A DNA stretch of 64,000 nucleotides from Aedes albopictus (taxonomy: Eukaryota; Arthropoda; Insecta; Diptera; Culicidae): contig NC_085138.1 of the NCBI RefSeq assembly GCF_035046485.1, positions 339,834,263 to 339,898,262 of the forward strand, given 5' to 3'. Below are positions 1 to 53,737 of this stretch, piece after piece. The stretch's first letter is position 1. Every line of letters begins with the position of its first letter. A model generated the notes under the pieces. The model was not told the DNA's origin. It saw only the letters and a list, made by a program, of their open reading frames with translations, and made no database searches. Both the position numbers and the translations under genes were made by a program.

Positions 1-80
1 CAGCTTACAGTGCCCTACTCACCCCAGCAAAATGGGGTAGCCGAAAGGAAAAACCGGTACATTGTTGAAATGGCACGGTG
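1..80 (+). CDS. Ty1/copia integrase, 5' fragment (cut by the insertion at 81)
   Basis: The reading frame starting at base 10 reads YSPQQNGVAERKNR, the integrase core segment around the catalytic Glu of the DD35E triad in copia elements. It continues through EMAR and stops being copia at base 81. Joining the frame at base 80 to base 6686 restores an uninterrupted copia protein (EMARC then MLIDAKLDD), so this is the upstream half of the pol gene at 6681-8864. The 5' LTR, gag and protease lie outside the window. Confidence 0.9.
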
Positions 81-108
81 CACAGTGGCTTATTTCAAAC
101 AAAAAAAC
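81..108 (+). promoter_or_regulatory. Left RSS-like end: heptamer, 12-bp spacer, A-rich nonamer
   Basis: CACAGTG (81-87) is identical to the consensus heptamer of V(D)J recombination signals. Twelve bases later comes CAAAAAAAC (100-108), resembling the nonamer ACAAAAACC; reading it one base earlier gives ACAAAAAAA after an 11-base spacer. The heptamer identity is visible directly. Whether the A-tract is a true nonamer is inference, because A-runs are common in this AT-rich element. Confidence 0.6.
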
Positions 109-1224
109 GGACGCATTTCAGCAACGCGTTTTCAGTTTATGGAAAATAGGGTATCTTATGTAAAAAAATCCGGGGAATCCGATGGTGCCAACCCCTTTCC
201 GGAAAAATGACAAGAAGTGTCCCATTTTGCCCCTTTTCTCCTATAAATTAGACATATTTTGATATATTAGGCCATAAAGAAGCATTCTCAAGATAAAATC
301 ATGCAATAAGTATGCAACTTGACGTAAAAAAGTCCAAGGAATCGAATACGGGTATCCCCTTTATTGTCAAGCATCGATAAGTGGCCCAATTCACCCCTAT
401 TCCCCTATAAGTTGATCTTTTTCAAAATATCGATTTAAAACAAAGCACAACTTTGATAAAGACATTCCAAAATGATGGTACCTTATGTAAAATAGTCTGG
501 GAAATCGAATACCGGTGTCCTCTTAATTTTCAAATATCGATAAGTGGCTTAATTCACCCCTATTCCCCTATAAGTTGAATTACTTGAAAAAAAGATCTAT
601 TACAATGCACAAGTTCGATAAGGACAATATATAATTATGGTATCTTACGTAAATAAGTCCAAGGAATCGAATGCTGGTATCCCCTCTATTGTTAAACATC
701 AATAAGATGTCCAATTTACCCCTATTCCCCTATAAGTTGATCTTTTTCAAAATATCGTTTAAAAAAACGATAATGCAATACAAAATGATGATACCTTACG
801 TAAAAAATACCAAGGAATCGAATGCTAGTATCCCCTTTACTGTCCATCATCGAGAAGTGGCCCAATTTACCCAGATTCCCCTAAAAGTTGATCTTTTTCT
901 AAAATATCGATTCAAAACAATGCACAACTCTGATAAAAACATTCCAGAATGATGGTACCTTATATAAAAAAGTCCAAGGAATCGAATGCTGGTATCCCCA
1001 TTATTGTCGACCCTCGAGAAGTGGCCCAATTCACCCCTATTCTCCTATAAGTTGATCTTTTTCAAAATATCGTTTTAAAAAAGGTACAACTTCGATTAAT
1101 ACAATAAAAAATGATGGTACCTTACGTAACAAAGATCAAGGAATCGAATGCCGGTATCCCCTTTATTTTCCATCATCAAAAAGTGGCCTAATTTACCCCT
1201 ATTCCCCTATAAGTTGATCTTTTT
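81..1224 (+). repeat. Left long terminal inverted repeat with ~160-bp tandem units
   Basis: This stretch is the near-perfect reverse complement of 5537-6680; the outer ~300 bases match at every position I compared. After the outer ~170 bases it consists of degenerate direct repeats of about 160 bp. Each carries phrases such as CCAAGGAATCGAATGC, CACCCCTATTCCCCTATAAG and GTTGATCTTTTTCAAAATA. Unit starts are near 330, 492, 651, 807, 968 and 1130. The eighth unit, near 1295, no longer matches its partner. Such subterminal repeats may be transposase binding sites, but that is inference. Confidence 0.88.
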
Positions 1225-1871
1225 CCAAAACATCGATTCAAAACAATGCACAACTTTGATAAAGGCATTCCAAAATGATGGTACCCTATGGAAAAAAGGT
1301 CCAAGGAATCGAGGGAGTATTCCATTTATTGAGCGTCCATAAATGATGTTACATTTTAGGGGGGAGGGGGGAGTCTGGGGTTGTGTGACGAGCCATGTAT
1401 TAGGTATGGGAAAATATACTACGCGGAGGAAGGAGAGAAAAAATTCGGCCAAAATAAGCTACGTTATTTAAGGATGCTCCCTTAGGGATCGTTTATAAAC
1501 CACGTAGACCTAAATTTGGTAATCTCAGACTCTTTTCTCCCCCTCGTAGACATGTGTCCATACAAAAATAAAATAAAATTTGTATAGAGCGGCCCCTTGC
1601 GTGTCGCGTTGCGTACTTTTACGGCCACCCATGAGAATATTCATTAATTATCTCTCTCTCACACACACATACACACACACGGACTGACCATAAGGATAAT
1701 GCCAGGGTGTACGAGATGTGACACGACACGCAAGAAAACACACGCAACACGCACACAAACTCCACAATTATCAATGAACTGTCAAATCGTATGAGTTGCA
1801 TCACATAGCGTTGCGCGTTGCGTCTAAACAACAAGCTTTTATTTACTCGCTTATTTACGTAAACCTTCAAA
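1225..1871 (+). other. Transposon 5' region upstream of the transposase
   Basis: The first ~100 bases are a divergent last copy of the 160-bp unit. They are followed by a G-rich patch near 1360-1380, a sequence that looks like an unrelated interspersed repeat (1440-1600), and an imperfect CA/GA microsatellite near 1650-1681. No coding potential is visible. The transposase promoter should lie here, but I could not identify a TATA box or initiator. Confidence 0.5.
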
Positions 1872-4800
1872 ATGAAGAACGAAGAAGTTGTGGAGATTTA
1901 TCTGCGTGTAAAGCAAGATCGCGAGTGTTTAATAAAGCAGCTTATCACAGATGGTGTGGCGAATCAGAAAGTGCTGTTGCCTGCTGTTACAAAGTGGATT
2001 AGAAACTTCCGGAACCGCTGGAAATTGTCGCATGGGAAACAAAAATTTTATGAGAAACATCAGGACTGGCTGGCTGAAACGTTCACAGTAAGATATACAA
2101 AATATATTGGATAAGCATTTTTTTTTCAAACAAAGTTAAAAAAGCTATAACTTTTTAACGGGTGCATAATAAGGGGTATGCAGATTATTTCATTATCGGA
2201 ATCTACGTCCAAAAACTAGTCGAAATCCATAATTTCATAATTTTGGGTGCGCTGGTACTATTTTCTATAAAGCGAATTGAATTAAATTCTATATGCATTT
2301 AAAGTTTGTATGGGGATTTTTTTTTGTTCTTGGCGAACTGTCATTTTATCGCTAGAACTGAAATTCTATCCACGGAAAATTACTGTTTATCAAAACTACC
2401 ATCATACGAAACAAAAAGCTCTGTTGATTATGCTATAGAAAATAGCAATATTTTATTAACTAAACAGCCCAATTCTTAAAATTCAACTGATTATCGATCA
2501 ATTTTTTGTACATAAAAGGTACAAATTTGGGCTCAATTAGGAAACCCTTTCGCATAGTTGGACCAGACCTTGCAAGAAAACGATAAGAGATAGAAGTTTG
2601 ATGTCAAAGAACGAATTGTAGAGTAAAACAGGGGCCACAACTTTGCCTAAGAAAGAATTTCAAATTATTACGCATTTTTGAAAGACAATTTACAAAAACC
2701 CTTTAAAAAGTTTGCACTCAGGAACCTAACACCCTGCATATAAATGAGCAACAAAAATCAGGAACGAATGAACAGATCAGTATGATCTTGCATGGATCGA
2801 ATCGTATTCATGGCGGCTGTGTTAATAAATTGAAAAAGTTACGAAAATCGTCTAGAAACGTGTGAACATTGTGAAAATACAGATTTTTTATGAGCCGGGA
2901 AGAAATTCAGCACGATCTAAATGAAATCATTCTAGAGTGCGGTGATGCGATGATCTCAACAGTTGTCAAACCACAACAGTTTGGGAACACTAAGTTTGCC
3001 GAGACAGCAATTATATAATATACCTATCTTTATAAAGGTGTTATGTTACATGTTGCTTTGCACTTCCTTACTTTTAAACTAGGTCGCAGAAATTTCGAAG
3101 AGCAAACGTGGTCCGAAAAACAAATGCTTCGAGGATCTTTCCGAGAGCTTGAAAAACAAGCAAAGCAAAGCATTAGCCAATACGGAGCCTTTGGAAAAGT
3201 TGTTGCGGGCAGCAGAAAAACTGTGTATGCATAGCGCGTCTCCTGGCATGGCAAAGGTGCTCCGGAAGCTGAGGATGCATGGAGAGGAATGGGCGCTCAT
3301 AGTTTTGAAGAAGGACAAGCAAAAAGAGTTTGTTAAGCCAGTAGCGGAGAAGTCGCTGCGCTTTAAAACTCGACTGGGCTTGACACGTAGGAAGTATGAG
3401 AGCGTCAGGAAATACACGAAGTCAATTTATGGTGGGAACTGCCTAGTTCCATGGGAAGAGGCGATGCAGTACAGAGATTCCATCATTCCGGCATATGATC
3501 CTCCGGTTTGGGAGAACGGAGTTTTAATCTCTAGGGTCGCTCTAAAAGAAATGGTCGTGAATATAATTGAGAGATTGTTAAGCATTGAGAAAGTTCAGGA
3601 GGCTGCAACCATGACTAACGGTGATCTGGACTGCGTATTGTTCCTGTCAGCTGGCGTAGATTCTGCGACTGGATTCAGCCTGTATAGTCAAAAAGGAATC
3701 TTAACGAAGGACAATTCGCTGCTCACCGAATGCGTGCTCCCACTAGCTTTGGAGACTAAATCTGGAAAAAAACTATGGACCAACCCCAACCCACAATCAG
3801 ACAAATTTTGCCGGGCCATGTCTATGAGCTGGCAAAAAGAAACTGATTTCGTAACACGGGATTTGTTTGATGGATTTTATGCAGAGGTTGATTGTATCGC
3901 GGAAAAGCCAATAGTCATGGAAAACGGGGTATTATATCTTATATAATGAAAACTTTTTTTTTGTTTTTCATTGCATTTATATTTTTGCAGGCAGGATCGA
4001 AGATGAATGTCACGGTTTCGGCGTTTTACTCCATGATTGACGGCAAGGTAGCTAATGCGGTGAATAAAAATAATGACACCCATAAGTGTCCTCTTTGCGT
4101 CGACGGAGCTGACAATCGGATTGGACCGTCTTTTTATCATTGTCGACTTAATTGTGTAGAATGGCTAATTCGGGTCTCTGGTCAGCTGCACATTCCTGGA
4201 CATCCCGCTCAAAAAGACACGAAAGTCAAGGAGAAAAGGAAGGAGATAACCAGGCAGCTGGAGGACCATTTTAATCTTTTGATAAATAGGCCAAAAATCG
4301 GTGGAAGCGGCTCATCCAATAATGGGAACACGGCTCGAACCCTTCTAGCTGATCCAAAGAACTTCTCCGCCATTTTGGGAATCGATCAAAAACTGGTTGA
4401 AAACCTCAGGATGATAAGTTCTTTGGCATTGTCATCAAAATATCTTGACGCCGAAAAAGTTGGACAATTCTAGATTGAGTTTAAATAAGGGCGAAAGTAA
4501 CATGAGAGAGTTCTCTTCATCGACTCTCTCTTCCTCAAATTAAAGTGACAAGATGCATGTATGGTTGCACTTTTTGGTCTTAAATCGCTAGGTTGCAATG
4601 CAATCTTGCGTCTAAGTGTAAAAAAGTTCGATTGAATTTGCATCTTGTCACTTTAATTGGCAGAAGAGAGAGTCGATGAAGAGAAATCGATCATGTTACT
4701 TTCGCCCTTATTTAAACTCAATCTAGAATTGTATAGGCAGCTAGAGCAGCAGATCTGGAAACAGTTCCCATTCCTCAACAAAAAAATACCGCCATCAATG

Positions 4801-5266
4801 CACAAATACTCTCACCTTCCAGAGTTCATCGAAAGATTGGTAATTATTATGCAGAATTTTTTATAGTAGTAAAAAATACTAATTTTATATTTTATTCCTC
4901 CAGCCATATCCTCTAAGCTTTGCGGATGAGCAAGCAGGTGAGAGGTGCCATAAACGGTCAAAATATGGTCGAACGCATCTTTCTCGGAAAACGTCACCAG
5001 AAACTAACTTGGAAGATATGATGCGTCTCTCATTAACTTGGTCAGACCCCAAACATGCTGATCAAGATGTGCGAGAAGAACGCAAACGTAAAGCTGTGAA
5101 AGATGAGCAGTTTGAGCGGCAGATGGCATTTTACTATTCCGAGCAAAATGATAAAAATGAGGACAATGAAGAAGAAATTAATGTACAGAGTGATTGTGAG
5201 GAGACGATGTACGATGATGAATCTAATGAAAGTGAAGAGGACAGCGATGAGAACTTTACCGAATAA
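1872..5266 (+). CDS. Transib/RAG1-like transposase, four exons, interrupted by a MITE
   Basis: The proposed exons are 1872-2087, 3083-3928, 3991-4839 (MITE at 4471-4725) and 4904-5266. All introns are GT-AG and phase 0, giving about 672 residues, a usual length for Transib. The N-terminal exon has a basic WIRNFRNRWKLSHGKQ segment. FEDLSESL follows in exon 2. The catalytic Asp-1 is in AGVDSATG (codon 3659), Asp-2 in MIDGKV (4039) and Glu in FADEQAG (4928). The zinc site matches RAG1: CPLC at 4087-4098 pairs with the HKYSH histidines just before LPEFIERL, which resembles RAG1 HVPEIIER. The C-terminus has the Transib-type RKTSPETN and SDPK phrases and an acidic tail. In-frame TAG at 4471 marks the MITE border, so this copy cannot make the full protein. 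The superfamily is secure; exon 1 is less so. Confidence 0.87.
2088..3082 (+). other. Proposed intron 1 of the transposase (995 bp)
   Basis: The donor GTAAGA directly follows the codons for LAETF and T, and the acceptor TTTAAACTAG precedes GTC GCA GAA. Joining them keeps the frame and places the N-terminal domain next to the conserved FEDLSE segment. The interval holds a 42-codon ORF at 2890-3018 with no recognised motif. It cannot be joined in frame through an obvious splice site. Nothing else is recognised here. Confidence 0.6.
4471..4725. mobile_element. 255-bp palindromic MITE inside transposase exon 3
   Basis: The two ends are inverted copies of about 100 bp: TAGATTGAGTTTAAATAAGG at the left and its complement at the right, continuing through a GTGACAAGATGCA segment. 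The left flank ends with codon TTC and the right begins with GAA. Removing exactly 255 bases rejoins VGQF with ELYRQLEQ in frame, as expected for a Transib protein. No direct duplication is clear; the flanks CAATTC and GAATTG are inverted rather than direct. The family is unknown. Confidence 0.8.
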
Positions 5267-5536
5267 TAAAAAATAAATGAAATTTATTACATTTTTGCAC
5301 AGGTGCAAAATAAATATTAAAATTCTTCTCATTTTATTATGCAAAAAATCTTTGACGGACACCACTTGATACGATTTGGGGAATTGGGGTGAAAAAAAGA
5401 GGTGGATTGGGCCTCTTATCGATGTTTGACAATAAAAGGGATACTGGCATTCGATTCCTTGGACCTTTTTACATGAGGTACGATCATTTTGGAATGTCTT
5501 TATCAAAGTTGTGTCTTGTTTTAATTAGATATTTTA
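5267..5536 (+). other. Transposase 3' UTR and inner repeat border
   Basis: AATAAA occurs at 5265-5270, overlapping the stop codon, and again at 5272-5277. A small hairpin (TTTTGCAC and GTGCAAAA) follows near 5292-5310. From about 5390 a divergent 160-bp unit begins, leading into the right inverted repeat. Confidence 0.55.
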
Positions 5537-6680
5537 AAAAAGATCAACTTATAGGGGAATAGGGGTAAATTAGGCCACTTCTTGATGATGGAAAATAAAG
5601 GGGCTACCGGCATTCGATTCCTTGATCTTTGTTACGTAAGGTACCATCATTTTTTATTGTATTAATCGAAGTTGTAACTTTTTTAAAACGATATTTTGAA
5701 AAAGATCAACTTATAGGAGAATAGGGGTGAATTGGGCCACTTCTCGAGGGTCGACAATAATGGGGATACCAGCATTCGATTCCTTGGACTTTTTTATATA
5801 AGGTACCATCATTCTGGAATGTTTTTATCAGAGTTGTGCATTGTTTTGAATCGATATTTTAGAAAAAGATCAACTTTTAGGGGAATCTGGGTAAATTGGG
5901 CCACTTCTCGATGATGGACAGTAAAGGGGATACTAGCATTCGATTCCTTGGTATTTTTTACGTAAGGTATCATCATTTTGTATTGCATTATCGTTTTTTT
6001 AAACGATATTTTGAAAAAGATCAACTTATAGGGGAATAGGGGTAAATTGGACATCTTATTGATGTTTAACAATAGAGGGGATACCAGCATTCGATTCCTT
6101 GGACTTATTTACGTAAGATACCATAATTATATATTGTCCTTATCGAACTTGTGCATTGTAATAGATCTTTTTTTCAAGTAATTCAACTTATAGGGGAATA
6201 GGGGTGAATTAAGCCACTTATCGATATTTGAAAATTAAGAGGACACCGGTATTCGATTTCCCAGACTATTTTACATAAGGTACCATCATTTTGGAATGTC
6301 TTTATCAAAGTTGTGCTTTGTTTTAAATCGATATTTTGAAAAAGATCAACTTATAGGGGAATAGGGGTGAATTGGGCCACTTATCGATGCTTGACAATAA
6401 AGGGGATACCCGTATTCGATTCCTTGGACTTTTTTACGTCAAGTTGCATACTTATTGCATGATTTTATCTTGAGAATGCTTCTTTATGGCCTAATATATC
6501 AAAATATGTCTAATTTATAGGAGAAAAGGGGCAAAATGGGACACTTCTTGTCATTTTTCCGGAAAGGGGTTGGCACCATCGGATTCCCCGGATTTTTTTA
6601 CATAAGATACCCTATTTTCCATAAACTGAAAACGCGTTGCTGAAATGCGTCCGTTTTTTTGTTTGAAATAAGCCACTGTG
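5537..6680 (-). repeat. Right long terminal inverted repeat
   Basis: This is the reverse complement of 81-1224. Differences appear only in the inner part, for example in the unit near 5600, where AGCCCC replaces ATCCCC when read in the same sense. It contains the same ~160-bp units in mirror order. Confidence 0.88.
6653..6680 (-). promoter_or_regulatory. Right RSS-like end, same spacing as the left end
   Basis: Read inward on the minus strand: CACAGTG (6680-6674), 12 bases, then CAAAAAAAC (6661-6653). Both ends therefore carry the same 12-base spacing rather than the unequal 12/23 pair used in V(D)J recombination. Confidence 0.6.
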
Positions 6681-8864
6681 CGGTGTATGCTTATTGATGC
6701 GAAGTTAGATGATCGTTTTTGGGGAGAGGCGGTGGTTACGGCAAATCATATGCAAAACCGTCTACCGTCTCGTTCGATTCAGGGCACTCCATATGAACGT
6801 TGGTTTGGGCGTAAACCGGATCTCAGCGATATTAGACCATTTGGCATTGATGTTTATTGCCATGTGCCGAAACAAAAACGAGGGAAATTGGACGAAAAAG
6901 CTGTCAAGCTGAAGTTTATGGGGTACAGCGAAGACACAAAAGGGTATCGTTTGGTGGATGTCCATACCGGAAAAGTGACAATAAGTAGGGATGTTCGATT
7001 CCTAAATACTTTTGATCCTATTAAGAAGTCTGAGGAAAATGAAGTGGTTGTACCATTGCATGTTTCGCATCCTCGTTCACATCAAGTTGTACCAGAAGAC
7101 ATTGCAGTAATATTAGACGACGAGCCTGACGACGATCCTGACGACTTCTGGGTTGATACAGAGTGCTTCTTGGATAGCAATCCTAATGACGACGAACCTT
7201 TTCAGGACCCGCTGAACCAGCCGGTGGAAGACCCGTTACAACTGTCAGTTCGGCGATCAGAGCGAGCAACGAGAGGTGTTCTTCCGCAGAGGTACGCGTG
7301 TGTAGCAGAGGAGGAGACTGAGCCACGAAACTACGACGAGTCGCAAAGTAGTATTCACAAGGACCAATGGCGGAATGCCATGCTTGAAGAGCTGGAGTCA
7401 ATTAAATCTAATGATGCCTGGGATATTGTTGATCTGCCACCAGGGAGGCGAGCACTAGGAAGCAAATGGGTATATAAGCTGAAGCGGGATTCGGACGGCA
7501 ACATTAGACGTTTCAAGGCTCGGCTCGTTGCCCAAGGGTTCAACCAGCGGTATGGAAGCGAGTACGACGAAATCTTTGCACCGGTGGTACGATTGACAAC
7601 ATTTCGAGCCCTTCTGTCCGTCTCAGCGAAAAGAGGAATGATAGTACAACAATATGATGTCAAGTCAGCTTTCCTTCACGGCAACCTTGAGGAGGAGATC
7701 TTCATCCGTCAGCCACCGGGATTTGTTGTAAAAGGTGCGGAAGGCAAGGTTTGCCGGCTGAAGAAGAGTTTGTATGGATTGAAGCAAGCGGCGCGGTCCT
7801 GGAATAATCGGCTTCATGAAGTTCTAGTGGGCGAAGGATTTGAGAGATGTGATTCGGATCCCTGTCTTTATCGTAAGCAAGTCGGGGATAAATTGTGTTT
7901 CGTACTTGTGTACGTAGACGATTTGATCGTTTCAAGTGATGACAAGGCCATCGTGGATTCTCTGGAGCAGAGTTTGAAGAAAAACTTCGCTATCAGCTGC
8001 CTAGGACACGTTCGGCAGTACCTTGGTGTTGAAGTAGGACAGGATGAAGGAGGAGACTACTATATCAGCCAGCAGCGATATATCGCCGATGTCGTCAAAT
8101 CTGCCGGTTTGGAGGATGCTAAAGTGACAGCGATTCCACTTGATACAGGATATGAAAAGCAAGATCAAGATCCAAACGTTCTACCTGACAATCACGAATA
8201 TCAACGTCTGATAGGGAAGTTACTGTTTATTGCTGTGAACTCACGCCCGGATATCGCTGCTTCCGTGTCTATCCTTAGCAGGAAAACCAGTAAACCTACT
8301 CAACGTGACTGGAACGAGGTTAAGAGAGTCATACGCTATTTAAAGGGAACCGCAAATCTGCAACTTCGCCTAAGTTACACTACCGACGGATCAGGACTGG
8401 TCGGTTATGCAGATGCCGACTGGGCGGAGTGTCGAGATGGCCGCAAATCGAATAGTGGCTTCGTATTCCAGTATAACGGTGGCACGATTTCGTGGGCGTG
8501 TCGCAAACAAGCTTGTGTGTCACTTTCGACAGCAGAAGCCGAATTTGTGGCTTTAGCGGAAGCCTCACAGGAAGCCCTATGGCTTAAACGATTGCTGACT
8601 GATTTAGGTGAGACTGTGACCACAGTTCGGATGAACGACGATAATCAAAGCTGTCTACGAATGCTCGACTGTGACAAGTTCAGCAACCGCACAAAACATA
8701 TCGATACCAAGTATTACTTCACTAAGGACCTGAAGCAATCTGGAGTAATGGAGTTCCAATACTGCCCGAGTGAACTAATGAGAGCTGATCTTCTAACAAA
8801 ACCACTCGCAAGGATCCGGCTAGGTGTGCTGAGGAAGCTGTGTGGCCTTGATGTCATGATCTGA
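6681..8864 (+). CDS. Ty1/copia pol: integrase C-terminus, reverse transcriptase, RNase H
   Basis: This is the continuation of the copia polyprotein after the transposon insertion, 728 codons without a stop. It runs from the integrase C-terminal region (FGIDVYCHVPKQKRGKLDEK) through a linker rich in Asp and Pro. Reverse transcriptase follows, with KWVYKLKRD, QYDVKSAFLHG and the catalytic YVDD in VLVYVDDLIVSS near 7908-7940. RNase H carries GYADADWA, SLSTAEAEF and TKHIDTKYYF. The order integrase before RT is diagnostic of copia. The first in-frame ATG is internal, because the real start lies upstream of this window. Apart from the transposon the frame is clean, so the copia was intact when it was hit. 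Confidence 0.95.
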   Translation, partial: RCMLIDAKLDDRFWGEAVVTANHMQNRLPSRSIQGTPYERWFGRKPDLSDIRPFGIDVYCHVPKQKRGKLDEKAVKLKFMGYSEDTKGYRLVDVHTGKVTISRDVRFLNTFDPIKKSEENEVVVPLHVSHPRSHQVVPEDIAVILDDEPDDDPDDFWVDTECFLDSNPNDDEPFQDPLNQPVEDPLQLSVRRSERATRGVLPQRYACVAEEETEPRNYDESQSSIHKDQWRNAMLEELESIKSNDAWDIVDLPPGRRALGSKWVYKLKRDSDGNIRRFKARLVAQGFNQRYGSEYDEIFAPVVRLTTFRALLSVSAKRGMIVQQYDVKSAFLHGNLEEEIFIRQPPGFVVKGAEGKVCRLKKSLYGLKQAARSWNNRLHEVLVGEGFERCDSDPCLYRKQVGDKLCFVLVYVDDLIVSSDDKAIVDSLEQSLKKNFAISCLGHVRQYLGVEVGQDEGGDYYISQQRYIADVVKSAGLEDAKVTAIPLDTGYEKQDQDPNVLPDNHEYQRLIGKLLFIAVNSRPDIAASVSILSRKTSKPTQRDWNEVKRVIRYLKGTANLQLRLSYTTDGSGLVGYADADWAECRDGRKSNSGFVFQYNGGTISWACRKQACVSLSTAEAEFVALAEASQEALWLKRLLTDLGETVTTVRMNDDNQSCLRMLDCDKFSNRTKHIDTKYYFTKDLKQSGVMEFQYCPSELMRADLLTKPLARIRLGVLRKLCGLDVMI

Positions 8865-11280: not shown

Positions 11281-12727
11281 CAGAAGTGAATTGTTTAATT
11301 CGGGAGGACCTGGTGAACCTTATTAGATCAAAACTTCTGGGACATATGGAACAGCAGTGATGCAATTCGTGAGGACCTAGTGAACCTTATCAGATCAAAA
11401 CTTCTCGGACATCTGGAACAGCTCCAAAAGTGAACTTTTTCGAAATTTTCTTGCATCACCATGCAATTCGGGAGGACCTGGTGAACCTTATTAGATCAAA
11501 ACTTCTGGGACATATGGAACAGCTGCAAAAGTGAACTGTTCCAAAAGTAAGTTTCTTGCATCACCATGCAATTCGGGAGGACCTGGTGAACCTTATTAGA
11601 TCAAAACTTCTCGGACATCTGGAACAGCTCCAAAAGTGAACTTTTTCGAAATTTTCTTGCATCACCATGCAATTCGGGAGGACCTGGTGAGCCTTATTAG
11701 ATCAAAACTTCTGGGACATATGGAACAGCTGCAAAAGTGAACTGTTTCGAAAGTTTCTTGCATCACCATGCAATTCGGGAGAACCTGGTGAACCTTACTG
11801 CCCATGATCGCATATCAGTCCCATCTTTGCTGGGTTTCCTATTCATATGGGACAATTATGCGATCATAGGCAGCTTATTAGATCAAAACTTCTGGGACAT
11901 ATGGAACAGCTGCAAAAGTGAACTGTTCCAAAAGTAAGTTTCTTGCATCACCATGCAATTCGGGAGGATCTGGTGAACTTTATTAGATCAAAACTTCTGG
12001 GACATATGAAACAGCAGTGATGCAATTCGTGAGGACCTGGTGAACCTTATCAGATCAAAACTTCTCGGACATCTGGAACAGCTCCAAAAGTGAACTTTTT
12101 CGAAATTTTCTTGCATCACCATGCAATTCGGGAGGACCTGGTGAACCTTATTAGATCAAAACTTCTGGGACATATGGAACAGCTGCAAAAGTGAACTGTT
12201 CCAAAAGTAAGTTTCTTGCATCACCATGCAATTCGGGAGGACCTGGTGAACCTTATTAGATCAAAACTTCTTACACATCTGGAACAGCTCCAAAAGTGAA
12301 AAGTTTCGAAATTTTCTTGCATCACCATGCAATTCGGAGGACCTGGTGAACCTAATTAGATCAAAACTTCTTGGACATCTGGAACAGCTCCAAAAGTGAA
12401 AAGTTTCGAAATTTTCTTGCATCACCATGCAATTTGGGAGGACCTGGTGAACTTTATTAGATCAAAACTTCTGGGACATATGAAACAGCAGTGATGCAAT
12501 TCGTGAGGACCTGGTGAACCTTATCAGATCAAAACTTCTCGGACATCTGGAACAGCTCCAAAAGTGAACTTTTTCGAAATTTTCTTGCATCACCATGCAA
12601 TTCGGGAGGACCTGGTGAACCTTATTAGATCAAAACTTCTGGGACATATGGAACAGCTGCAAAAGTGAACTGTTCCAAAAGTAAGTTTCTTGCATCACCA
12701 TGCATTTCGGGAGGACCTGGTGAACCT
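11281..12727 (+). repeat. Satellite array, left block, ~105-bp unit
   Basis: Tandem units carry TTAGATCAAAACTTCT, a GGACAT.TGGAACAGCT segment, TTTCTTGCATCACCATGCAA and TTCGGGAGGACCTGGTGAAC. Two main variants alternate: GGGACATATGG with GCTGCAAAAG, and CGGACATCTGG with GCTCCAAAAG. A short unit missing about 45 bases (AACAGCAGTGATGCAATTCG) recurs near 11350, 12010 and 12486. The open frames in it are by-products of the repeat, not genes. Confidence 0.95.
11798..11873. mobile_element. 76-bp MITE inside the satellite
   Basis: It starts CTGCCCATGATCGCATA and ends with the inverted TATGCGATCATAGGCAG. It is flanked by the direct repeat CTTA (11794-11797 and 11874-11877). Removing it with one CTTA restores the satellite consensus exactly. 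The centre reads CAGTCCCATCTTTGCTGGG. A second copy lies at 30301-30375. Confidence 0.88.
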
Positions 12728-13247
12728 TGTGGTACCTTGTGGTATGCACATAATAAATTATTGTATTACTCTATTACGTTTAGCGTGTATGTTTACATTG
12801 AGTATCTGTCATATGTGGAGATGTTGTTATTGTAGGGTACTGCAAGCACCTGATCTAACCTCACTTTGTCTGACAGTTCAGCGAGCTTGTTTACAAGGTG
12901 TTAGAATTTTAAACGAGCGGCGAAAATTAAACTTACGTTTTCCGTCCCGAAACCATTATGATATGGAAATATCGATTATATTCAACTCTACTAATACAAA
13001 ACCAATCGTCTAATTACCCTTTTACTGAAATTGAATCAAAAAACAGTTTTGCCGGATCTCCGCCAGAGACTAAGTCCATGTAAACAAGCTCGCTGAACTG
13101 TCAGTGCACGGCTTCGTGACGTCATCTTGCAGTATCCTGTTGTCTAGAGTGTGAATCATTGTATGTTATATTGAAGTATCGGTAATAAAGTGTATACAAA
13201 TAATGAATACAGTTGTTGAATAATCATTACAGAGAAAGATTCTCACA
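12728..13247 (+). repeat. 5' LTR of the LARD-like element, with an inserted MITE
   Basis: Apart from the insertion at about 12834-13139, it matches the 213-bp 3' LTR essentially base for base. It ends GATTCTCACA, followed by the putative primer-binding site at 13248. Confidence 0.88.
12834..13139. mobile_element. ~306-bp MITE inside the 5' LTR
   Basis: This segment is absent from the 3' LTR, which reads straight from GTTGTTATTG into TTGTCTAGAG. Its ends are inverted: AGGGTACTGCAAG against CTTGCAGTATCCT. Further in, CTGACAGTTCAGCGAGCTTG pairs with its complement near 13085-13104. No clear target duplication can be assigned, because the site itself reads TTGTTG. Confidence 0.8.
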
Positions 13248-17675: not shown

Positions 17676-19600
17676 AACCTTATTAGATCAAAACTTCTTA
17701 CACATCTGGAACAGCTCCAAAAGTGAAAAGTTTCGAAATTTTCTTGCATCACCATGCAATTCGGAGGACCTGGTGAACCTAATTAGATCAAAACTTCTTG
17801 GACATCTGGAACAGCTCCAAAAGTGAAAAGTTTCGAAATTTTCTTGCATCACCATGCAATTTGGGAGGACCTGGTGAACCTTATTAGATCAAAACTTCTG
17901 GGACATATGGAACAGCTGCAAAAGTGAACTGTTCCAAAAGTAAGTTTCTTGCATCACCATGCAATTCGGGAGGACCTGGTGAACCTTATTAGATCAAAAC
18001 TTCTTACACATCTGGAACAGCTCCAAAAGTGAAAAGTTTCGAAATTTTCTTGCATCACCATGCAATTCGGAGGACCTGGTGAACCTAATTAGATCAAAAC
18101 TTCTTGGACATCTGGAACAGCTCCAAAAGTGAAAAGTTTCGAAATTTTCTTGCATCACCATGCAATTCGGGAGGACCTGGTGAACCTTATTAGATCAAAA
18201 CTTCTTACACATCTGGAACAGCTCCAAAAGTGAAAAGTTTCGAAATTTTCTTGCATCACCATGCAATTCGGAGGACCTGGTGAACCTAATTAGATCAAAA
18301 CTTCTTGGACATCTGGAACAGCTCCAAAAGTGAACTTTTTCGAAATTTTCTTGCATCACCATGCAATTCGGGAGGACCTGGTGAACCTTATTAGATCAAA
18401 ACTTCTGGGACATATGGAACAGCTGCAAAAGTGAACTGTTCCAAAAGTAAGTTTCTTGCATCACCATGCATTTCGGGAGGACCTGGTGAACCTTATTAGA
18501 TCAAAACTTCTTACACATCTGGAACAGCTCCAAAAGTGAAAAGTTTCGAAATTTTCTTGCATCACCATGCAATTCGGGAGGACCTGGTGAACCTTATTAG
18601 ATCAAAACTTCTTACACATCTGGAACAGCTGCAAAAGTGAACTGTTTCGAAAGTTTCTTGCATCACCATGCAATTCGGGAGAACCTGGTGAACCTTATTC
18701 TGGGACATATGGAACAGCTGCAAAAATGAACTGTTCCAAAAGTAAGTTTCTTGCATCACCATGCAATTCGGGAGGACCTGGTGAACCTTATTAGATCAAA
18801 ACTTCTGGGACATATGGAACAGCTGCAGAAGTACTGTTCCAAAAGTAAGTTTCTTGCATCACCATGCAATTCGGGAGGACCTGGTGAACCTTATCAGATC
18901 AAAACTTCTCGGACATCTGGAACAGCTCCAAAAGTGAACTGTTTCGAAAGTTTCTTGCATCACCATGCAATTCGGGAGAACCTGGTGAACTAGATCAAAA
19001 CTTCTGGGACATATGGAACAGCTGCAAAAGTGAACTGTTCCAAAAGTAAGTTTCTTGCATCACCATGCAATTCGGGAGGATCTGGTGAACTTTATTAGAT
19101 CAAAACTTCTGGGACATATGGAACAGCAGTGATGCAATTCGTGAGGACCTGGTGAACCTTATCAGATCAAAACTTCTCGGACATCTGGAACAGCTCCAAA
19201 AGTGAACTTTTTCGAAATTTTCTTGCATCACCATGCAATTCGGGAGGACCTGGTGAACCTTATTAGATCAAAACTTCTGGGACATATGAAACAGCTGCAA
19301 AAGTGAACTGTTCCAAAAGTAAGTTTCTTGCATCACCATGCGATTCGGGAGGACCTGGTGAACCTTATCAGATCAAAACTTCTCGGACATCTGGAACAGC
19401 TCCAAAAGTGAACTGTTTCGAAATTTTCTTGCATCACCATGCAATTCGGGAGGAACTGGTGAACCTTATTAGATTGTACAAATCTAGTGGGTGTATCTGG
19501 TCCCAGTAAACTCCAGAAGTGAATTGTTATAATAGTAAATTACTTACATGACCATGCAATTCGGGAGGACGTGTAAAACCCTATTAGATCAAACCTCTGC
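17676..19600 (+). repeat. Satellite array, right block
   Basis: The same ~105-bp satellite resumes right after the LTR element. A variant with CTTACACATCTGG is more common here. The short unit with AACAGCAGTGATGCAATTCG appears again near 19120. The array fades out after about 19510 in diverged copies ending near 19600. Confidence 0.93.
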
Positions 19601-23240: not shown

Positions 23241-23269
23241 TTCTTTAAGAATTTTGCGGTATCGGAAGA

Positions 23270-24124
23270 ATGCCAGATCAAAATTCCCCCCGAAACTGCC
23301 AGTCCTGCAAGCGGAAGGATACCGCTGAGAAGGAGATGGTACAATGCGGCTTATGCAAGTTGTGGGAGCACTTCGGCTGTGCTGGAGTGGATGAAACTAT
23401 ACGGGATCCCGACATTCCGTATGTGTGCCAGCGGTGTGCGAAGCAAAGAACCTCTGTGGGTGGTAATTTAACCGTCCCTACCGACGAAGCTCGTCCCCCG
23501 AAAGGTACGAAAGGCGGATCAAAGGCAAGTTCGAAGGGAACCCGGAAATCAAAAAAAAATCCTGACCCGACCGAAAGCGTGACATCCAGTGTGCGTGCCG
23601 CTATGCTAGCGGAGCAACTGAAGCTCATCGCTGAAGAGCAGATGTTGGCGGAGCAAGAACTACGCGAGCAGGAAGACGTCAAGAAGAGACAGCTCGAAGA
23701 GGAAGAACGTAGACTAGAAGAAAAACGGCAGCTAGTGGAGGAGGCGAACCAGCTCCGTGAACGAAAACTGAAGGAAGAGCTTGAAACGAAGCGCAAGCAG
23801 CAACAAGTGAGGCGAGAATCGTTCGAGAAACGCCAAGAGATCATTCGCCAGCTGGCAGAAGTGAGCAGTAGAAGCGGGTCGGAGAGAAGCTCGGTCGTAA
23901 ATTCTAAGCAAAAGGTTTCAAACTGGTTGGACGATCAGAGCGCCGGAAGATTGGACGGACATCGTGATGAAAAAACGTCAGCTACTAATCTCGATATGAT
24001 ACCTGAAAACCCGGTGGATCGCGCCCTTTTTTCATCACCATCAGTGCCGCAAGACACACACAACTCTCGAGCCTCGTCCGCCCGCCACGACGCTGGAAGA
24101 TTAGACGGACACCGAGGTAGATAA
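23270..24124 (+). CDS. BEL copy A Gag N-terminal part with a PHD-type zinc finger
   Basis: The product is 284 residues, starting at the first ATG after the LTR. Residues 10-56 have the C4HC3 pattern of a PHD finger (C10, C13, C26, C29, H34, C37, C53, C56, with W32 before the His). A basic Lys/Ser-rich linker follows. Residues ~105-200 are a highly charged Glu/Arg/Gln-rich segment that should form a coiled coil. AGRLDGHR occurs twice near the end. The frame ends in TAA at 24122, immediately followed by ATG in the same frame, so it and the next CDS were one polyprotein or are joined by readthrough. PHD fingers bind histone tails in other proteins; a targeting role here is speculation. Confidence 0.85.
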   Translation: MPDQNSPRNCQSCKRKDTAEKEMVQCGLCKLWEHFGCAGVDETIRDPDIPYVCQRCAKQRTSVGGNLTVPTDEARPPKGTKGGSKASSKGTRKSKKNPDPTESVTSSVRAAMLAEQLKLIAEEQMLAEQELREQEDVKKRQLEEEERRLEEKRQLVEEANQLRERKLKEELETKRKQQQVRRESFEKRQEIIRQLAEVSSRSGSERSSVVNSKQKVSNWLDDQSAGRLDGHRDEKTSATNLDMIPENPVDRALFSSPSVPQDTHNSRASSARHDAGRLDGHRGR

Positions 24125-26345
24125 ATGGCAGCGCCAGACCTCGATCGATGCCCCGAAGACCCAGTGGACTCACTCGCGCTACAGATTCACCAAGATGTTC
24201 GTAATATTGGAATGCTTGGAGATCACTCTCAACAGGCTGCTTCAATTCCGTTATCGCCCCCTGCGACATCGGTGACTCGTGTTCTCTCGCAATCTCAAAT
24301 AGCGGCTCGGCAAGTCCTCGGAAAGGACTTACCCGTTTTCAGCGGCGATCCAGAAGACTGGCCCATCTTTATAAGCAATTTCGAGCAATCATCAACCACA
24401 TGTGGCTATTCAGATGCAGAAAATCTTGTTCGCTTACAGCGAAGCCTGAAAGGACACGCCCTCGAATCGGTGAGAAGCCGATTGCTCCTGCCGGCAAGCG
24501 TACCGCACGTTATTCAGACCCTGCGTATTCTCTACGGCAGACCGGAGCTCATTATACGCTCGCTATTGAGTAAAATGCAAAACGTTCCGGCTCCAAGGCA
24601 CGACCGATTGGAAACACTGATCCAGTTTGGACTCTCCGTGCAAAACTTCGTAGATCATCTGAAAGCGGCCAACCAACAGAGTCATTTGTCAAACCCGGCA
24701 TTGATGCAAGAGCTTGTGGAGAAGTTGCCTGGATCAATGAGATTAGACTGGGCCATTTACAAAAACAAGCATCAGCCATCAACCCTAGAGACGTTTGGTG
24801 ACTTTATGTCTGGCCTTGTGACAGCTGCAAGTGAGGTGTCATTCGATCTACCAGGAACGAGCTTCGGGTCGAGAAGTGATAGACGAAAGCCGAGGGATTT
24901 TAGCGCTGTTCATGCGCACCCAGAAGAACATCATTCCAGCATCCCAAGTTACTCTAAAACAAACAAACCGTGTATGGCATGCGGGCGTGCTGGCCATAGA
25001 GTAGCCGAATGTCAGCAATTCAAGGGCGCTAGTATGGACGAACGCTGGGAATTAGTCAGGCAGAAAGGATTGTGTCGAACCTGCCTCAACAGTCACGGGA
25101 AATGGCCGTGTCGATCATGGAGCGGCTGTAATATCGAAGGGTGCCGACAAAAGCACCATTCCCTTCTTCACACGTCCCCCACACGTCCTGAGGATGTCGG
25201 TGTCTCGGCCACTCACTTGGTTTCTGGTGGTCTCAAATGGCCGCTATATCGAATTCTGCCGGTCGTCCTCTTCAGCAAAAATGCGTCCCTTACAGTATTC
25301 GCCTTCATAGACGAGGGATCTTCATACACCCTTTTGGAAGAATCCATCGTTAACCAGCTGGGGATCCAAGGTCAATTGGAACCATTGACCCTGCAGTGGA
25401 CCAATAATGTGAAACGAGTTGAGCCTAGTTCACAACGTGTGCGGATGGGCATAGCGGGAAAGAATTGTAGCACTCAATACAAGCTAGTGGAAGCGAGGAC
25501 AGTCAATCGTCTAGTTCTTCCCTCGCAGACCCTTAAATATGGAGAGCTTGCACATCATTTCCCTCATTTGCGCGGTCTTCCCATGGACGACTACGAGCTG
25601 GTGCAGCCTAAGCTGCTGATAGGCCTTGATAACTTGAGGTTATGTGTACCGCTGAAACTACGAGAAGGAAAAGCGTCGGATCCTATTGGTGCCAAATGCC
25701 GGCTTGGTTGGAGCGTCTATGGCTGTATTCATGGCCAGACACTACAATCAGCAACTGTCAACTTCCACGTCGGTGCAGTATCCGATTCGGACAAACAAAT
25801 GAATGAGCAGCTTCGGGATTACTTTTCACTAGAAGAATGTGGAATAACTGGCCCGTTTGCCCGCCCCGAGTCTGAGGAAGACAAGCGCGCGAGAATTATA
25901 TTGGAGGAAACCACACGACGGGTGCCAACCAGCTCGGTGTTCGAAACGGGACTGTTATGGAAGACTAACGAACCACACTTCCCTGACAGTTATCCCATGG
26001 CCGTGCGTCGACTGGAGGCGTTAGAGCGAAAACTGAAAGGTCAACCAGAAATGAAGGAACGTGTTGTGAAGGAGATCTCGGAATACCAACGAAAAGGCTA
26101 CGCACACAGGGCTAGCCTAACCGAACTGACATCCGTTGAAGCCGAGCGTGTGTGGTATCTTCCTCTCGGCGTGGTTACCAACCCACGAAAACCAGAAAAG
26201 GTCCGTTTAATATGGGATGCGGCCGCCAAGGTCGGTGATGTCTCGTTCAATTCCAGGCTGCTTAAAGGACCTGATTTGCTGACGCCACTCCTGAAAGTAC
26301 TTTTCCAATTCCGGCAGTATCCCGTAGCGGTGTGTGGAGGGAGAC
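24125..26345 (+). CDS. BEL copy A Gag-Pol middle: capsid, zinc knuckle, protease, RT start
   Basis: This is the same frame as the preceding CDS, after the stop. DLPVFSGDPEDWPIFISNF and the following helices are the gag-like domain found in BEL proteins. A zinc knuckle (CMACGRAGHRVAEC) and a second Cys/His cluster follow. The aspartic protease motif is FIDEGSSYTLLEE near residues 390-402, with Glu-Gly after the Asp as in several BEL proteases. The RT begins at NPRKPEKVRLIWDAAAKV. The natural product should continue VCGDI.EMFHQI, but after VCGG the frame is off by one base and then runs into a MITE. Confidence 0.9.
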
Positions 26346-26348
26346 ATA

Positions 26349-26509
26349 ATAAGGCTATCTGACGTTTAATCACCTTTCTCTTTTTGGCTCCCAAGGAGGA
26401 TAGGTTTGTTTTCATAGGGAAACGTTTCCCTATGAAAACATTAAACAAAAAATTGCTATCTTCTGCTGCTGCTTGAGAGAGAAGGGTGATGAACGCTAGA
26501 TTGCCTTAT
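26349..26509. mobile_element. ~160-bp MITE inside the BEL copy A RT
   Basis: The imperfect inverted ends are ATAAGGCTATCTGACGTTTA at the left and the complement of ATAAGGCAATCTAGCGTTCA at the right, continuing into CACC.TTCTCT. The inner part holds a second small palindrome (TTTTCATAGGGAAACG and CGTTTCCCTATGAAAA). It separates the RT halves VCGG and EMFHQIKIR. Confidence 0.75.
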
Positions 26510-29489
26510 GGAGATGTTCCACCAGATCAAGATTCGCCATCCTGACTGTCAGTCGCAACGTTTTCTATTCCGTGAACATTCTTCAGAGCAGCCCCAGGTG
26601 TATATTATGGATGTGGCTACGTTCGGCTCCACCTGCTCGCCAGCCTCTGCACAATATGTGAAGAACCTTAACGCACAGCAGTTCTCCAACGAGTATCCTA
26701 GAGCCTCTGAAGCCATTGTTACCAAGCACTATGTGGACGACTACTTGGATAGTTTTCAAACGATCGAAGAGGCAGTAGAGGTAGTAAAAGAAGTTATTCA
26801 GGTTCATTCCAAAGGTGGCTTTAAGCTACGACACTTCCTATCCAACGAACCGAAGGTGCTGAATGAAATCGGAGAGACTACGGAACTGCTACAGAAGAAC
26901 ATGGATTTAGAACGAGGAGGAAAGACCGAGTCAGTGCTCGGAATGAAATGGATGCCGCATGAGGATATTTTTGTGTATTCGCTCGGACTTAGAGAAGATC
27001 TGCAATACGTACTTCACGAAGGTCACATTCCGACGAAACGTGAAATTGCCCGGGTAGTGATGAGTTTGTTCGACCCCCTGGGATTCATCGCGTTTTTTCT
27101 CGTACACGGGAAAATTCTACTCCAAGAGATCTGGGTAAAGGGAACGGCATGGGATGAACGGATACCAGATGAGCTTGTCGAACGATGGGAAAGGTGGATA
27201 ATTCTCTTTGAACAGTTGGACCATATTCGAGTCCCACGTTGCTATTTTCGTCAGTTTCCTACTGTGAACTACGATCGCCTTCAACTGCACCTATTTGTTG
27301 ACGCCAGTGAAGAAGCCTATGCTTGTGCAGTTTATTTTCGCCTGGAGACCGATAGCAACCCACAAGTGGCATTGGTCAGTGCAAAGGTCAAAGTTGCACC
27401 ACTAAAAACACTTTCTATTCCTAGACTGGAACTGAAGGCAGCTGTTCTTGGGATTCGTCTACTACAAACCGTTCAGAATCACCACACTTTCCAAATAATC
27501 AAGCGCTACTGTTGGAGTGACTCCGGAACCGTTCTTGCCTGGATTCGTTCTCAAGATCACCGAAGGTACAACAAGTTTGTAGCCGTCCGGATCGGCGAAA
27601 TATTAACATCCACCGACATGAATGATTGGAGATGGGTGCCATCAAAACTCAATGTCGCTGACCTTGCAACCAAATGGGATACCGGTCCGCAGTTCACTAT
27701 GAATAGCCCTTGGTTCCAAGGGCCAAGTTTCCTTCGTGGCCCAGAAGATACATGGCCTCGACAACGGACAATTACACCAACCACCGAGGAGATTCGTTCT
27801 ATACGCAGTACTTTGGCACACTTTCCACCGATCATGGACTTCAACAGGTTCAGCAGTTGGACCAGAATGCATCGTGCAACAGCGTATGTGTGGCGCTTTT
27901 CCGACAACATTCGTCGCAAAATGAGAGGAGAAACACTGGAGCTTGGGATCCTGACCAGCAACGAACTTCAACGAGCAGAAGAAACGCTATGGAAAGCGGC
28001 CCAATCCGAAGCGTTCCCAGATGAAATTTCGGTACTCAGCAAATCCCAAGGATCACCGGAAATATGTCACAACGTTGTTGCCAAATCTAGCGCCATCTAT
28101 AACAGATGGCCATTCATTGACGAAAGAGGAGTCCTGCGAAGTCGTGGACGCATCGCTGCTGCACCGTATGTCCCAATCGAAACCAAATTTCCCGTAATCC
28201 TTCCCAAACAACATCCAATCACGCTCTTGCTTGTAGAGCGATTCCATCGCCTCTTTCGGCATGCTAACCGAGAGACTATTTTCAATGAAATTCGTCAACG
28301 TTTTGAAATTCCAACCTTGAGACGAGTTTTGGATAAAATCGTCAAAAACTGTACTTTCTGTCGTATCGCAAAGGCAACACCAAAACCACCTGCTATGGCC
28401 CCACTTCCTGAGATGCGGCTCCATGCTTACATTCGTCCGTTTACATTCACTGGTCTGGATTATTTTGGTCCGGTGTTGGTAAAGATTGGTAGAAGCCATG
28501 TTAAGCGATGGATAGCCCTATTCACGTGCCTCACGATTAGGGCTATTCATTTAGAGGTGGTTCACTCGTTAAGCACAGATTCATGCATTATGGCTGTCCA
28601 GCGGTTCGTTTCTCGCCGCGGCCTGCCAAAAGAATTCTGGACTGATAACGCAACATGCTTTCATGGAGCGAACAATGAGCTGAAATCTCACATGGTCGAA
28701 GCGAATAAGGCGTTGGCTGAGAAGTTCACCACTTCAAAAACTACTTGGAAGTTCATCCCACCGGCAGCACCACATATGGGCGGAGTGTGGGAAAGACTCG
28801 TCCGCTCAGTGAAGGTTTCAATCGGATCAGTGCTAGACGGACCTCGCAAACCAAGTGACGAAACGCTAGAAACCATTATAATCGAAGCAGAGTCAATGAT
28901 TAATGCCAGGCCTCTTACATACATCCCACTGGATTCGGCAGATCAAGAGGCATTGACACCGAACCATTTCTTGCTGGGGAACTCGAGCGGGGAAAAATTT
29001 GTAACTACGGGAGAAGTGACGGATCGTGCGACACTGAGAAGTAGTTGGAAGTTAGCAAGATTCATAAACCATGAATTCTGGAATAGATGGATCAAAGAGT
29101 ACCTCCCAGTAATTACAAGGCGTTGCAAATGGTTCAAGGATGTCAAGGACTTCGAAGTAGGTGATTTGGTCTTGATAGTCGAAGGGAAAGCGAAGGATCA
29201 GTGGGTTCGGGGACGGATTGCGCAGGTGTTCCCTGGACGAGACGGCAGAGTGCGGCAAGCGATGGTAAGAACCTCGACGGGGATTATTAGGAGGCCAGCT
29301 GTGAAACTGGCATTGCTAGACGTCGTGAAGGATAGTAAACCTGATTCCGGAGCTCCAGACGTTCACCAAGGTTTACGGGCAGGGGTATGTTGCGACGTGG
29401 ATCGCCGTCGTGGCAACACTGCCGACCACCGACCTGCGTCCGACTCTGGAAACGCTATCAACGTCAACGGAGATGATAAGGCAAATTAA
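26508..29489 (+). CDS. BEL copy A Pol C-terminal part: RT, RNase H, integrase
   Basis: The coding sequence really resumes at GAG (26511), reading EMFHQIKIRHPD; the upstream ATG belongs to the MITE end. The RT active site is KHYVDDYLDSF near 26731-26763. RNase H starts at LHLFVDASEEAYACAVYF. The integrase has an HHCC finger (HRLFRHANR to CTFCRIAKA) and a DDE core: GLDYFGP, FWTDNATCF and PHMGGVWERL. The frame runs 34 codons into the 3' LTR to a stop at 29487. From 26511 the frame is uninterrupted. Confidence 0.93.
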   Translation: MEMFHQIKIRHPDCQSQRFLFREHSSEQPQVYIMDVATFGSTCSPASAQYVKNLNAQQFSNEYPRASEAIVTKHYVDDYLDSFQTIEEAVEVVKEVIQVHSKGGFKLRHFLSNEPKVLNEIGETTELLQKNMDLERGGKTESVLGMKWMPHEDIFVYSLGLREDLQYVLHEGHIPTKREIARVVMSLFDPLGFIAFFLVHGKILLQEIWVKGTAWDERIPDELVERWERWIILFEQLDHIRVPRCYFRQFPTVNYDRLQLHLFVDASEEAYACAVYFRLETDSNPQVALVSAKVKVAPLKTLSIPRLELKAAVLGIRLLQTVQNHHTFQIIKRYCWSDSGTVLAWIRSQDHRRYNKFVAVRIGEILTSTDMNDWRWVPSKLNVADLATKWDTGPQFTMNSPWFQGPSFLRGPEDTWPRQRTITPTTEEIRSIRSTLAHFPPIMDFNRFSSWTRMHRATAYVWRFSDNIRRKMRGETLELGILTSNELQRAEETLWKAAQSEAFPDEISVLSKSQGSPEICHNVVAKSSAIYNRWPFIDERGVLRSRGRIAAAPYVPIETKFPVILPKQHPITLLLVERFHRLFRHANRETIFNEIRQRFEIPTLRRVLDKIVKNCTFCRIAKATPKPPAMAPLPEMRLHAYIRPFTFTGLDYFGPVLVKIGRSHVKRWIALFTCLTIRAIHLEVVHSLSTDSCIMAVQRFVSRRGLPKEFWTDNATCFHGANNELKSHMVEANKALAEKFTTSKTTWKFIPPAAPHMGGVWERLVRSVKVSIGSVLDGPRKPSDETLETIIIEAESMINARPLTYIPLDSADQEALTPNHFLLGNSSGEKFVTTGEVTDRATLRSSWKLARFINHEFWNRWIKEYLPVITRRCKWFKDVKDFEVGDLVLIVEGKAKDQWVRGRIAQVFPGRDGRVRQAMVRTSTGIIRRPAVKLALLDVVKDSKPDSGAPDVHQGLRAGVCCDVDRRRGNTADHRPASDSGNAINVNGDDKAN

Positions 29490-41165: not shown

Positions 41166-41188
41166 CTGCTTGAGTGATACCAACCAAC

Positions 41189-43237: not shown

Positions 43238-43805
43238 AGGAATCTGGAAGGCAGATATACTGTCACACTCCCAAAGGAAGAAGACGCTGTGTCACAGCTG
43301 GGCGAGTCCAAGGAAATCGCTATCCGGCGTCTTCAAGGTACCGAGCGTAGATTGGGCAGAAATGCAAATCTCCACAAAAGCTATCACGACTTCATGGAGG
43401 AATATGAATCGATGGGACATATGGTCAAGGTGGAAGGAACAGCTTTAACAGCACAACGGCGTTGTTTCCTACCTCATCATCCTGTTTTCAAAGAAGACAG
43501 TACTACCACGAAGGTCAGGGTGGTGTTTGACGCTTCCTGTGCAACGTCATCCGGCGTATCGCTCAACAATGTGTTACTGACAGGACCGGTAATACAGGAC
43601 GACTTGAGGTCAATCATCATGCGGTGTCGTACCAAGCAGATCATGCTCGTTTCGGACGTCGAAAAGATGTTCCGGCAAATCTGGGTGCATCCGGACGACA
43701 GACCTCTCCAATGCATCTTGTGGCGCACCAACCCTCAGGACGAGATCAACGTTTACGAGCTCAAAACCGTTACGTACGGAACGAAATCGGCACCATACCT
43801 AGACC
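43238..43805 (+). CDS. BEL copy B RT, N-terminal half (after the stop, before the frameshift)
   Basis: In frame with the preceding segment: GRYTVTLPKEED, HHPVFKED, KVRVVFDASCATSSGVSLN and LLTGP, then VSDVEKMFRQIWVHPDD, which contains a catalytic Asp, and YGTKSAPYL. Just after APYL the frame ends in unrelated codons. The expected continuation (TLKQLA.DEE) is in the next frame, so a small deletion lies near 43800. Confidence 0.88.
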
Positions 43806-53733: not shown

Positions 53734-53737
53734 GGAG

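What the first reader, a model, noticed from the sequence alone, without database searches (positions are those of the whole stretch)
81..6680. Complete RAG1-like (Transib) transposon with exact CACAGTG ends
Seen: CACAGTG at both termini, a 5-bp CGGTG duplication that restores the copia frame on removal, and a four-exon gene whose motifs (AGVDSATG, MIDGKV, CPLC, HKYSH with LPEFIERL, FADEQAG) line up with the Asp, Asp, Cys2, His2 and Glu order of RAG1. Known: Transib is the source superfamily of RAG1, but its usual heptamer is CACWATG-like. Here the heptamer equals the V(D)J consensus, and the LPEFIER stretch looks closer to RAG1 than the Transib sequences I recall. Whether this family is already catalogued I cannot tell.
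Basis: partly seen in the sequence, partly recalled or inferred. Interest (0 to 1): 0.9.

Follow-up and report, generated by a model that had tools for sequence, protein, structure and literature searches.

The report
Divergent mosquito Transib transposon, long ends
This is a cut-and-paste jumping gene of the kind that gave rise to the antibody-shuffling enzyme RAG1; it belongs to a mosquito branch of that family that has drifted unusually far from its relatives, and it ends in very long, repeat-filled arms.

Summary
A 6,600-bp element (81-6680) sits in a copia-like reading frame between two CGGTG copies, begins and ends with CACAGTG, and carries a four-exon gene interrupted by a MITE.

It encodes a Transib transposase: sequence, and the predicted fold of a homologue, match HzTransib best. 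It is not specially close to RAG1. A profile of its clade scores HzTransib 107 bits and RAG1 at most 20.6; its identity to RAG1/RAG1L is slightly below that of ordinary Transibs. RSS-identical heptamers are already reported for some Transibs (PMC6941560, passages).

The less ordinary part is the clade. The 7 named relatives (of 46) are culicine mosquitoes. The clade is about 21% identical to canonical Transibs, roughly the Transib-RAG1 distance, with its own active-site motifs, an H-x3-H zinc pair (canonical H-x4-H) and a zinc loop 17 residues shorter. Copy number and TIR conservation were not tested: genome search did not complete 16 times.

The parts
76..80 (.). target-site duplication CGGTG, left copy
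6681..6685 (.). target-site duplication CGGTG, right copy
81..1331 (+). left long terminal inverted repeat; begins CACAGTG; outer 1,003 bp identical to the right arm
5430..6680 (-). right long terminal inverted repeat; ends CACTGTG
322..1312 (+). tandem array in the left arm, period 162, 6.1 copies
5406..6439 (-). tandem array in the right arm, period 162, 6.4 copies
81..107 (+). RSS-like terminus: CACAGTG, 11-bp spacer, ACAAAAAAA (7 of 9 to the RSS nonamer); mirrored at the other end; nonamer likeness weak
   Evidence: shuffle fractions 0.03 to 0.21 depending on spacers allowed; RSS consensus from PMC8289069, passage
1872..2087 (+). exon 1 (72 aa), Transib-like N-terminal segment
   Evidence: modest
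3083..3928 (+). exon 2, includes first catalytic Asp (AGVDSATG) and the conserved KETD Glu
3991..4839 (+). exon 3, includes second Asp (MIDGK), CPLC and the H-x3-H zinc pair; contains the MITE
4470..4726 (.). MITE inserted in exon 3, flanked by AATT; perfect inverted arms of 42 bp counted from 4464/4732; exact ends inferred
4904..5266 (+). exon 4 with stop codon: third catalytic acid (FADEQAGER), helix, acidic tail

Best explanation
A Transib-superfamily cut-and-paste DNA transposon, from a fast-diverged lineage known so far by name only from culicine mosquitoes, that inserted into a copia-like retrotransposon and was later hit by a MITE. Inferred mechanism, by homology to HzTransib and RAG1: a transposase dimer binds the CACAGTG-headed ends, nicks 5' of the heptamer, leaves hairpins on the flanking DNA and blunt transposon ends, and joins them 5 bp apart into a GC-rich target, giving the CGGTG duplication. 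Shown: ends, duplication, gene anatomy, catalytic and zinc residues, sequence homology, fold of a homologue. Inferred: binding, cleavage, transposition, and that the 162-bp repeats in the arms help (extra binding sites or regulatory DNA). This copy cannot now make an intact transposase from the assembled sequence, because the MITE brings a stop.
Against: Pfam's RAG1 model does not hit any of the five exon pieces at E up to 1, nor P0015 or P0001 at E up to 0.1. Identity to canonical Transibs is only about 21%. No second copy was seen, so the element ends rest on one insertion. Activity is not shown.
Confidence: 0.93

Rival explanations
1. It is a RAG1-like (RAGL/ProtoRAG-type) transposon, or a Transib lineage specially close to RAG1.
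For: CACAGTG equals the RSS heptamer; nonamer-like A-run 11 bp inside; HLPEFIER resembles RAG1 HVPEIVER. In the tree without the long row P0158 the canonical Transibs form one side of a branch and the clade lies on the other side with RAG1 (95/74, not starred), so sisterhood to all canonical Transibs is open.
Against: Clade profile: RAG1 at most 20.6 bits against 107 for HzTransib. Identity to RAG1/RAG1L lower than for canonical Transibs. No kelch/PHD match in the 11 ORF pieces of the element scanned. RAG1L tail motif Cx2Cx3GHx4C in 0 of 46 clade proteins (most of these end before the tail). RAG1-rooted tree with P0158 puts the clade inside Transib, next to P0031 (96/78; enclosing node 98/97).
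Confidence: 0.04
2. The long arms are not part of the transposon's working ends but a satellite or nested palindromic insertion, or an assembly product.
For: Outer 1,003 bp are identical while the inner part of the arms differs; the arms are tandem repeats, which misassemble easily. The window holds another near-perfect inverted pair of retrotransposons.
Against: The repeat pair starts exactly at the CACAGTG bases next to the TSD, and the gene lies between the arms; the arms are not perfect copies over their whole length (98.2%).
Confidence: 0.07
3. A domesticated host gene rather than a mobile element.
For: Relatives are annotated as genes in mosquito assemblies.
Against: Intact TSD, full-length inverted ends, insertion in a retrotransposon frame, MITE in the coding exon.
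Confidence: 0.01

Closest known systems
HzTransib (Helicoverpa zea; PDB 6pqn, 6pqx)
   Different: about 22-23% identity of the homologue in structure alignment; H-x4-H and 30-residue loop against H-x3-H and 13; Hztransib is 3,518 bp against 6,600 bp; no repeat-built arms mentioned in the passages seen
Other canonical insect Transib proteins (P0029-P0032, P0051-P0158)
   Same: domain order and catalytic positions
   Different: G-x-DG[AS] at the first Asp in 100 of 112 against G-x-DSAT in 33 of 46 here; [ST]EE..E..NK at the last Glu in 77 of 112 against DEQ..ER.HK (6 of 46, the rest mostly end before it)
RAG1 / amphioxus RAG1L (ProtoRAG)
   Same: fold, DDE and zinc ligands; heptamer equal to the RSS consensus
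Unnamed culicine-type relatives P0001-P0028 (less P0029-32), P0033-P0050
   Same: 39-64% identity within the tree sample, same motifs, conserved intron positions suggested by read-through into the introns in P0001
   Different: DNA of their ends is not held here, so whether they share the long repeat arms is unknown

Membership tests
Transib superfamily | transposase homologous to characterised Transib (HzTransib) | tested here: met
Transib superfamily | D, D, E catalytic acids and Cx2C / H..H zinc ligands in RAG1/Transib order | tested here: met
   His spacing is one residue shorter than canonical
Transib superfamily | RAG1/Transib fold | tested here: met
   model of homologue P0015, not of the window protein
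Transib superfamily | 5-bp, GC-rich target-site duplication | tested here: met
   CGGTG on both sides; single insertion
Transib superfamily | TIRs beginning with a CAC heptamer like the RSS | tested here: met
   CACAGTG at both ends
[quoted passage not shown]
   mean 19.9% and 16.8% over the 16 clade rows of the tree, maxima 23.2 and 18.5 (RAG pieces are those printed by a Transib-containing profile); only 72 aa precede exon 2
Transib superfamily | nick-hairpin cleavage and transposition | not testable with these tools
   needs biochemistry
RAGL (ProtoRAG-type) transposon | convergent RAG2-like kelch gene | tested here: not met
   no kelch or PHD match in 11 ORF pieces scanned against Pfam at E up to 1; shorter ORFs were not scanned
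RAGL (ProtoRAG-type) transposon | Cx2Cx3GHx4C C-terminal tail | tested here: not met
   0 of 46 clade proteins (most end before the tail); absent from the window's tail by reading
RAG1/RAG1L clade | closer to RAG1 than canonical Transibs are | tested here: not met
   trees 49 and 51 leave sisterhood to all canonical Transibs open

The most novel reading that the evidence does not exclude
The culicine elements are a third deep lineage of the RAG/Transib superfamily, beside canonical Transib and RAG1/RAGL. They work from a remodelled zinc site (H-x3-H, loop shortened by 17 residues) and replace short TIRs by kilobase arms whose repeat units carry degenerate copies of the terminal transposase site (AGTGGC-YY-AATTCA), so that synapsis uses arrays of sites rather than one RSS-like site.
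Probability: 0.2. Interest if true: 0.75.

Novelty: new variant of a known kind. Interest (0 to 1): 0.5.

Why it matters
Transib is the only known kin of RAG1 outside the RAGL transposons. A lineage as distant from canonical Transib as RAG1 is, yet keeping the fold and catalytic residues, helps separate what the enzyme family must keep from what it can change, above all in the zinc site. Terminal arms built of repeats that echo the end sequence make a concrete test of whether RAG-family transposases can use arrays of end sites. The heptamer itself adds little.

Tried and rejected
Heptamer as evidence: two copies in the window is fewer than shuffles give, so it was not used as proof.

RSS-like nonamer: 7 of 9 at spacer 11 and again at 13; 3% of shuffled ends do as well at spacers 11-13, 6% when 22-24 are added, 21% for any spacer 8-29; random window stretches 0.8% and 1.6% for the first two. 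Reported as weak.

Terminal-motif copies inside the 162-bp units: 5 places with at least 10 of 14, null mean 1.3, but the largest of 300 shuffles also reached 5; one place has 13 of 14, and at least 12 of 14 occurred in 1% of shuffles. The places share one ancestor unit, so they are not independent. Suggestive only.

Closer-to-RAG1: rejected on profile scores and identities. Against my reading: the tree is not settled. With P0158 the clade groups with P0031 inside Transib (96/78); without P0158 it falls outside the 23 canonical rows (95/74), and the program warns that long branches meet in both. With three groups each on its own side, an unrooted tree cannot say which two are closest. RAG1 entered only as pieces printed by a Transib-containing profile (zebrafish fills about half of the columns). 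The 493 bits of HzTransib against profile A1 is not independent, since A1 holds four canonical Transibs. Profile A2 leaves most of the C-terminus out. The tree used 16 clade rows (window included) of 47 and 24 Transib rows (HzTransib included) of 113.

The one canonical protein with an H-x3-H pattern (P0137) matches at another place, next to its second Asp; one canonical protein, P0138, has GYDSATG. 30 of 112 canonical proteins matched neither His pattern and were not examined.

DNA of relatives: none found in viral contigs or genome contigs. Copy search in the window's genome never ran. Kapitonov and Jurka 2005 is not held. Literature searches for this clade or for repeat-built Transib ends gave no listing about it; many listings were not opened, and Repbase and TEfam are not held, so the family may be catalogued there. 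Papers opened were seen as passages only: PMC8355894, PMC7204232, PMC6941560, PMC1852546, PMC7728395, PMC3442997, PMC8289069.

Full report
What is there. Window 81-6680 is a 6,600-bp element between two copies of CGGTG (76-80, 6681-6685). It begins CACAGTG and ends CACTGTG, the only two copies of that heptamer in the window. The arms 81-1331 and 5430-6680 are inverted copies, 98.2% identical over 1,253 columns, without a single difference in the outer 1,003 bp. From 322 to 1312 and 5406 to 6439 the arms consist of a 162-bp unit in 6.1 and 6.4 copies. The element lies in a copia-like frame that is open on both sides: the downstream part runs to 8864 without a stop, the upstream part runs off the window, and both read the CGGTG in the same phase. 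The insertion therefore looks recent, though arm identity can also come from gene conversion.

The gene. Exons 1872-2087, 3083-3928, 3991-4839 and 4904-5266 have GT/AG borders. The annotated Armigeres subalbatus protein P0015 continues across the last junction in the same way, and the unspliced reading P0001 runs on into the second and last introns at the same points. Exon 3 carries a MITE of about 257 bp with 42-bp perfect inverted arms and AATT on either side, which brings a stop. This copy is thus interrupted; whether uninterrupted copies exist in this genome is unknown.

What it is. Exon 2 and exon 3 pieces each have HzTransib as best solved relative (E 5.8e-6 and 2.5e-10); the last exon alone finds only an unrelated weak hit (E 0.11). 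Pfam names nothing at E up to 1 that fits. The protein search with exons 1 to 3a gave 32 hits: 28 at 40-62% identity and 4 canonical Transibs at 24-26%. A search with the alignment of the 28 gave 39 hits, 18 of them new, for 46 culicine-type proteins in all. Seven of the 46 have names: Armigeres subalbatus, Ochlerotatus camptorhynchus (2), Aedes albopictus (2), Aedes aegypti, Culex quinquefasciatus. Armigeres, Ochlerotatus and Culex are Culicinae; Aedes is placed there from general knowledge. The other 39 have no name, so restriction to Culicinae is not shown. The species of the window is not known.

What is different. Against 112 canonical proteins collected, the clade shows: G-x-DSAT at the first Asp (33 of 46; canonical 1 of 112) instead of G-x-DG[AS] (0 of 46; canonical 100 of 112); DEQ..ER.HK at the last Glu (6 of 46, most of the others ending before it; canonical 0 of 112) instead of [ST]EE..E..[NH]K (0 of 46; canonical 77 of 112). 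At the zinc site 36 of 46 have H-K-x2-H; of the other 10, nine end before the site by reading and one, P0014, has Tyr for the first His. Canonical proteins have H-x4-H in 81 of 112 (30 matched neither pattern), as do HzTransib, zebrafish RAG1 and amphioxus RAG1L. The stretch between C-x2-C and the next conserved His is 13 residues in 32 of the 35 clade proteins where it could be measured and 30 in 83 of 92 canonical ones. Mean identity is 21.4% between clade and canonical Transibs, 49% within the clade sample, 37% within the canonical sample, and 21.7 / 19.5% between canonical Transibs and zebrafish RAG1 / amphioxus RAG1L. So the clade is about as far from canonical Transib as RAG1 is, on RAG pieces that a Transib-containing profile picked out.

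Is it nearer to RAG1? No sign of it. The clade-only profile gives HzTransib 107 bits and the best RAG1 20.6 bits; the canonical profile A3 gives RAG1 43 and RAG1L 49 bits. Identities to RAG1 and RAG1L are 19.9 and 16.8% for the clade, 21.7 and 19.5% for canonical rows. The maximum-likelihood tree of 42 rows has the clade as one group (100/100) on a stem of 3.44 changes per column, inside Transib when RAG1 is the root (98/97; sister row P0031 at 96/78). Without the long row P0158 the 23 canonical rows hold together (95/74) and the clade lies outside them. Its exact place is open. The LPEFIER likeness is real but local.

Mechanism. By homology (HzTransib makes flank hairpins and blunt transposon ends like RAG: PMC6941560, passage) the transposase would cut at the CAC ends and insert with a 5-bp stagger. 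The 162-bp units each hold AGTGGC-YY-AATT-Y-A, like the terminal AGTGGCTTATTTCA; five lie at 10 of 14 or better, one at 13 of 14. This could give a ladder of binding sites, but the statistics are marginal and the units share one origin.

Known or new. An RSS-identical heptamer is not new for Transib (PMC6941560, passage). 'Long TIRs' were stated for Hztransib, without a length in the text held (PMC1852546, passage). No paper describing this clade or repeat-built Transib arms came up in ten searches, whose listings were mostly not opened; Repbase and TEfam are not held. I file it as a member of the Transib superfamily and as a new variant of it.

Not done. Sixteen calls to the genome search did not complete, so copy number, MITE-free copies, conservation of ends and the host species remain open.

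Noticed in passing
46390-53734 and 54272-61619: Two retrotransposon copies of about 7.3 kb in opposite orientation, 99.8% identical over 7,350 columns; each has 613-614-bp terminal repeats identical within the copy and ORFs of 415 and 1,213 aa (gypsy-like by eye). Recent double insertion or an assembly matter.
   Followed up: partly
39023-40167 and 61971-63116: Direct repeat of about 1.15 kb, 99.9% identical, lying on either side of the inverted retrotransposon pair.
   Followed up: no
17676-19366, with related sequence at 12020-12728: Tandem array with a unit of about 100 bp, judged from the spacing of self-matches.
   Followed up: no
23249-29489 and 41174-46394: Two further retroelement coding regions, BEL/Pao-like by eye only; no domain search was made.
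   Followed up: no
5143-5266 (last exon): The transposase ends in an acidic tail (19 Asp/Glu in the last 40 residues by the fraction 0.475); five of six clade proteins that reach the end are at 0.40 or more, 69 canonical proteins average 0.26 with a maximum of 0.65.
   Followed up: partly
P0027 (Culex quinquefasciatus): A clade member is named 'fibrinogen alpha chain' in a public record, which looks like a misannotation.
   Followed up: no
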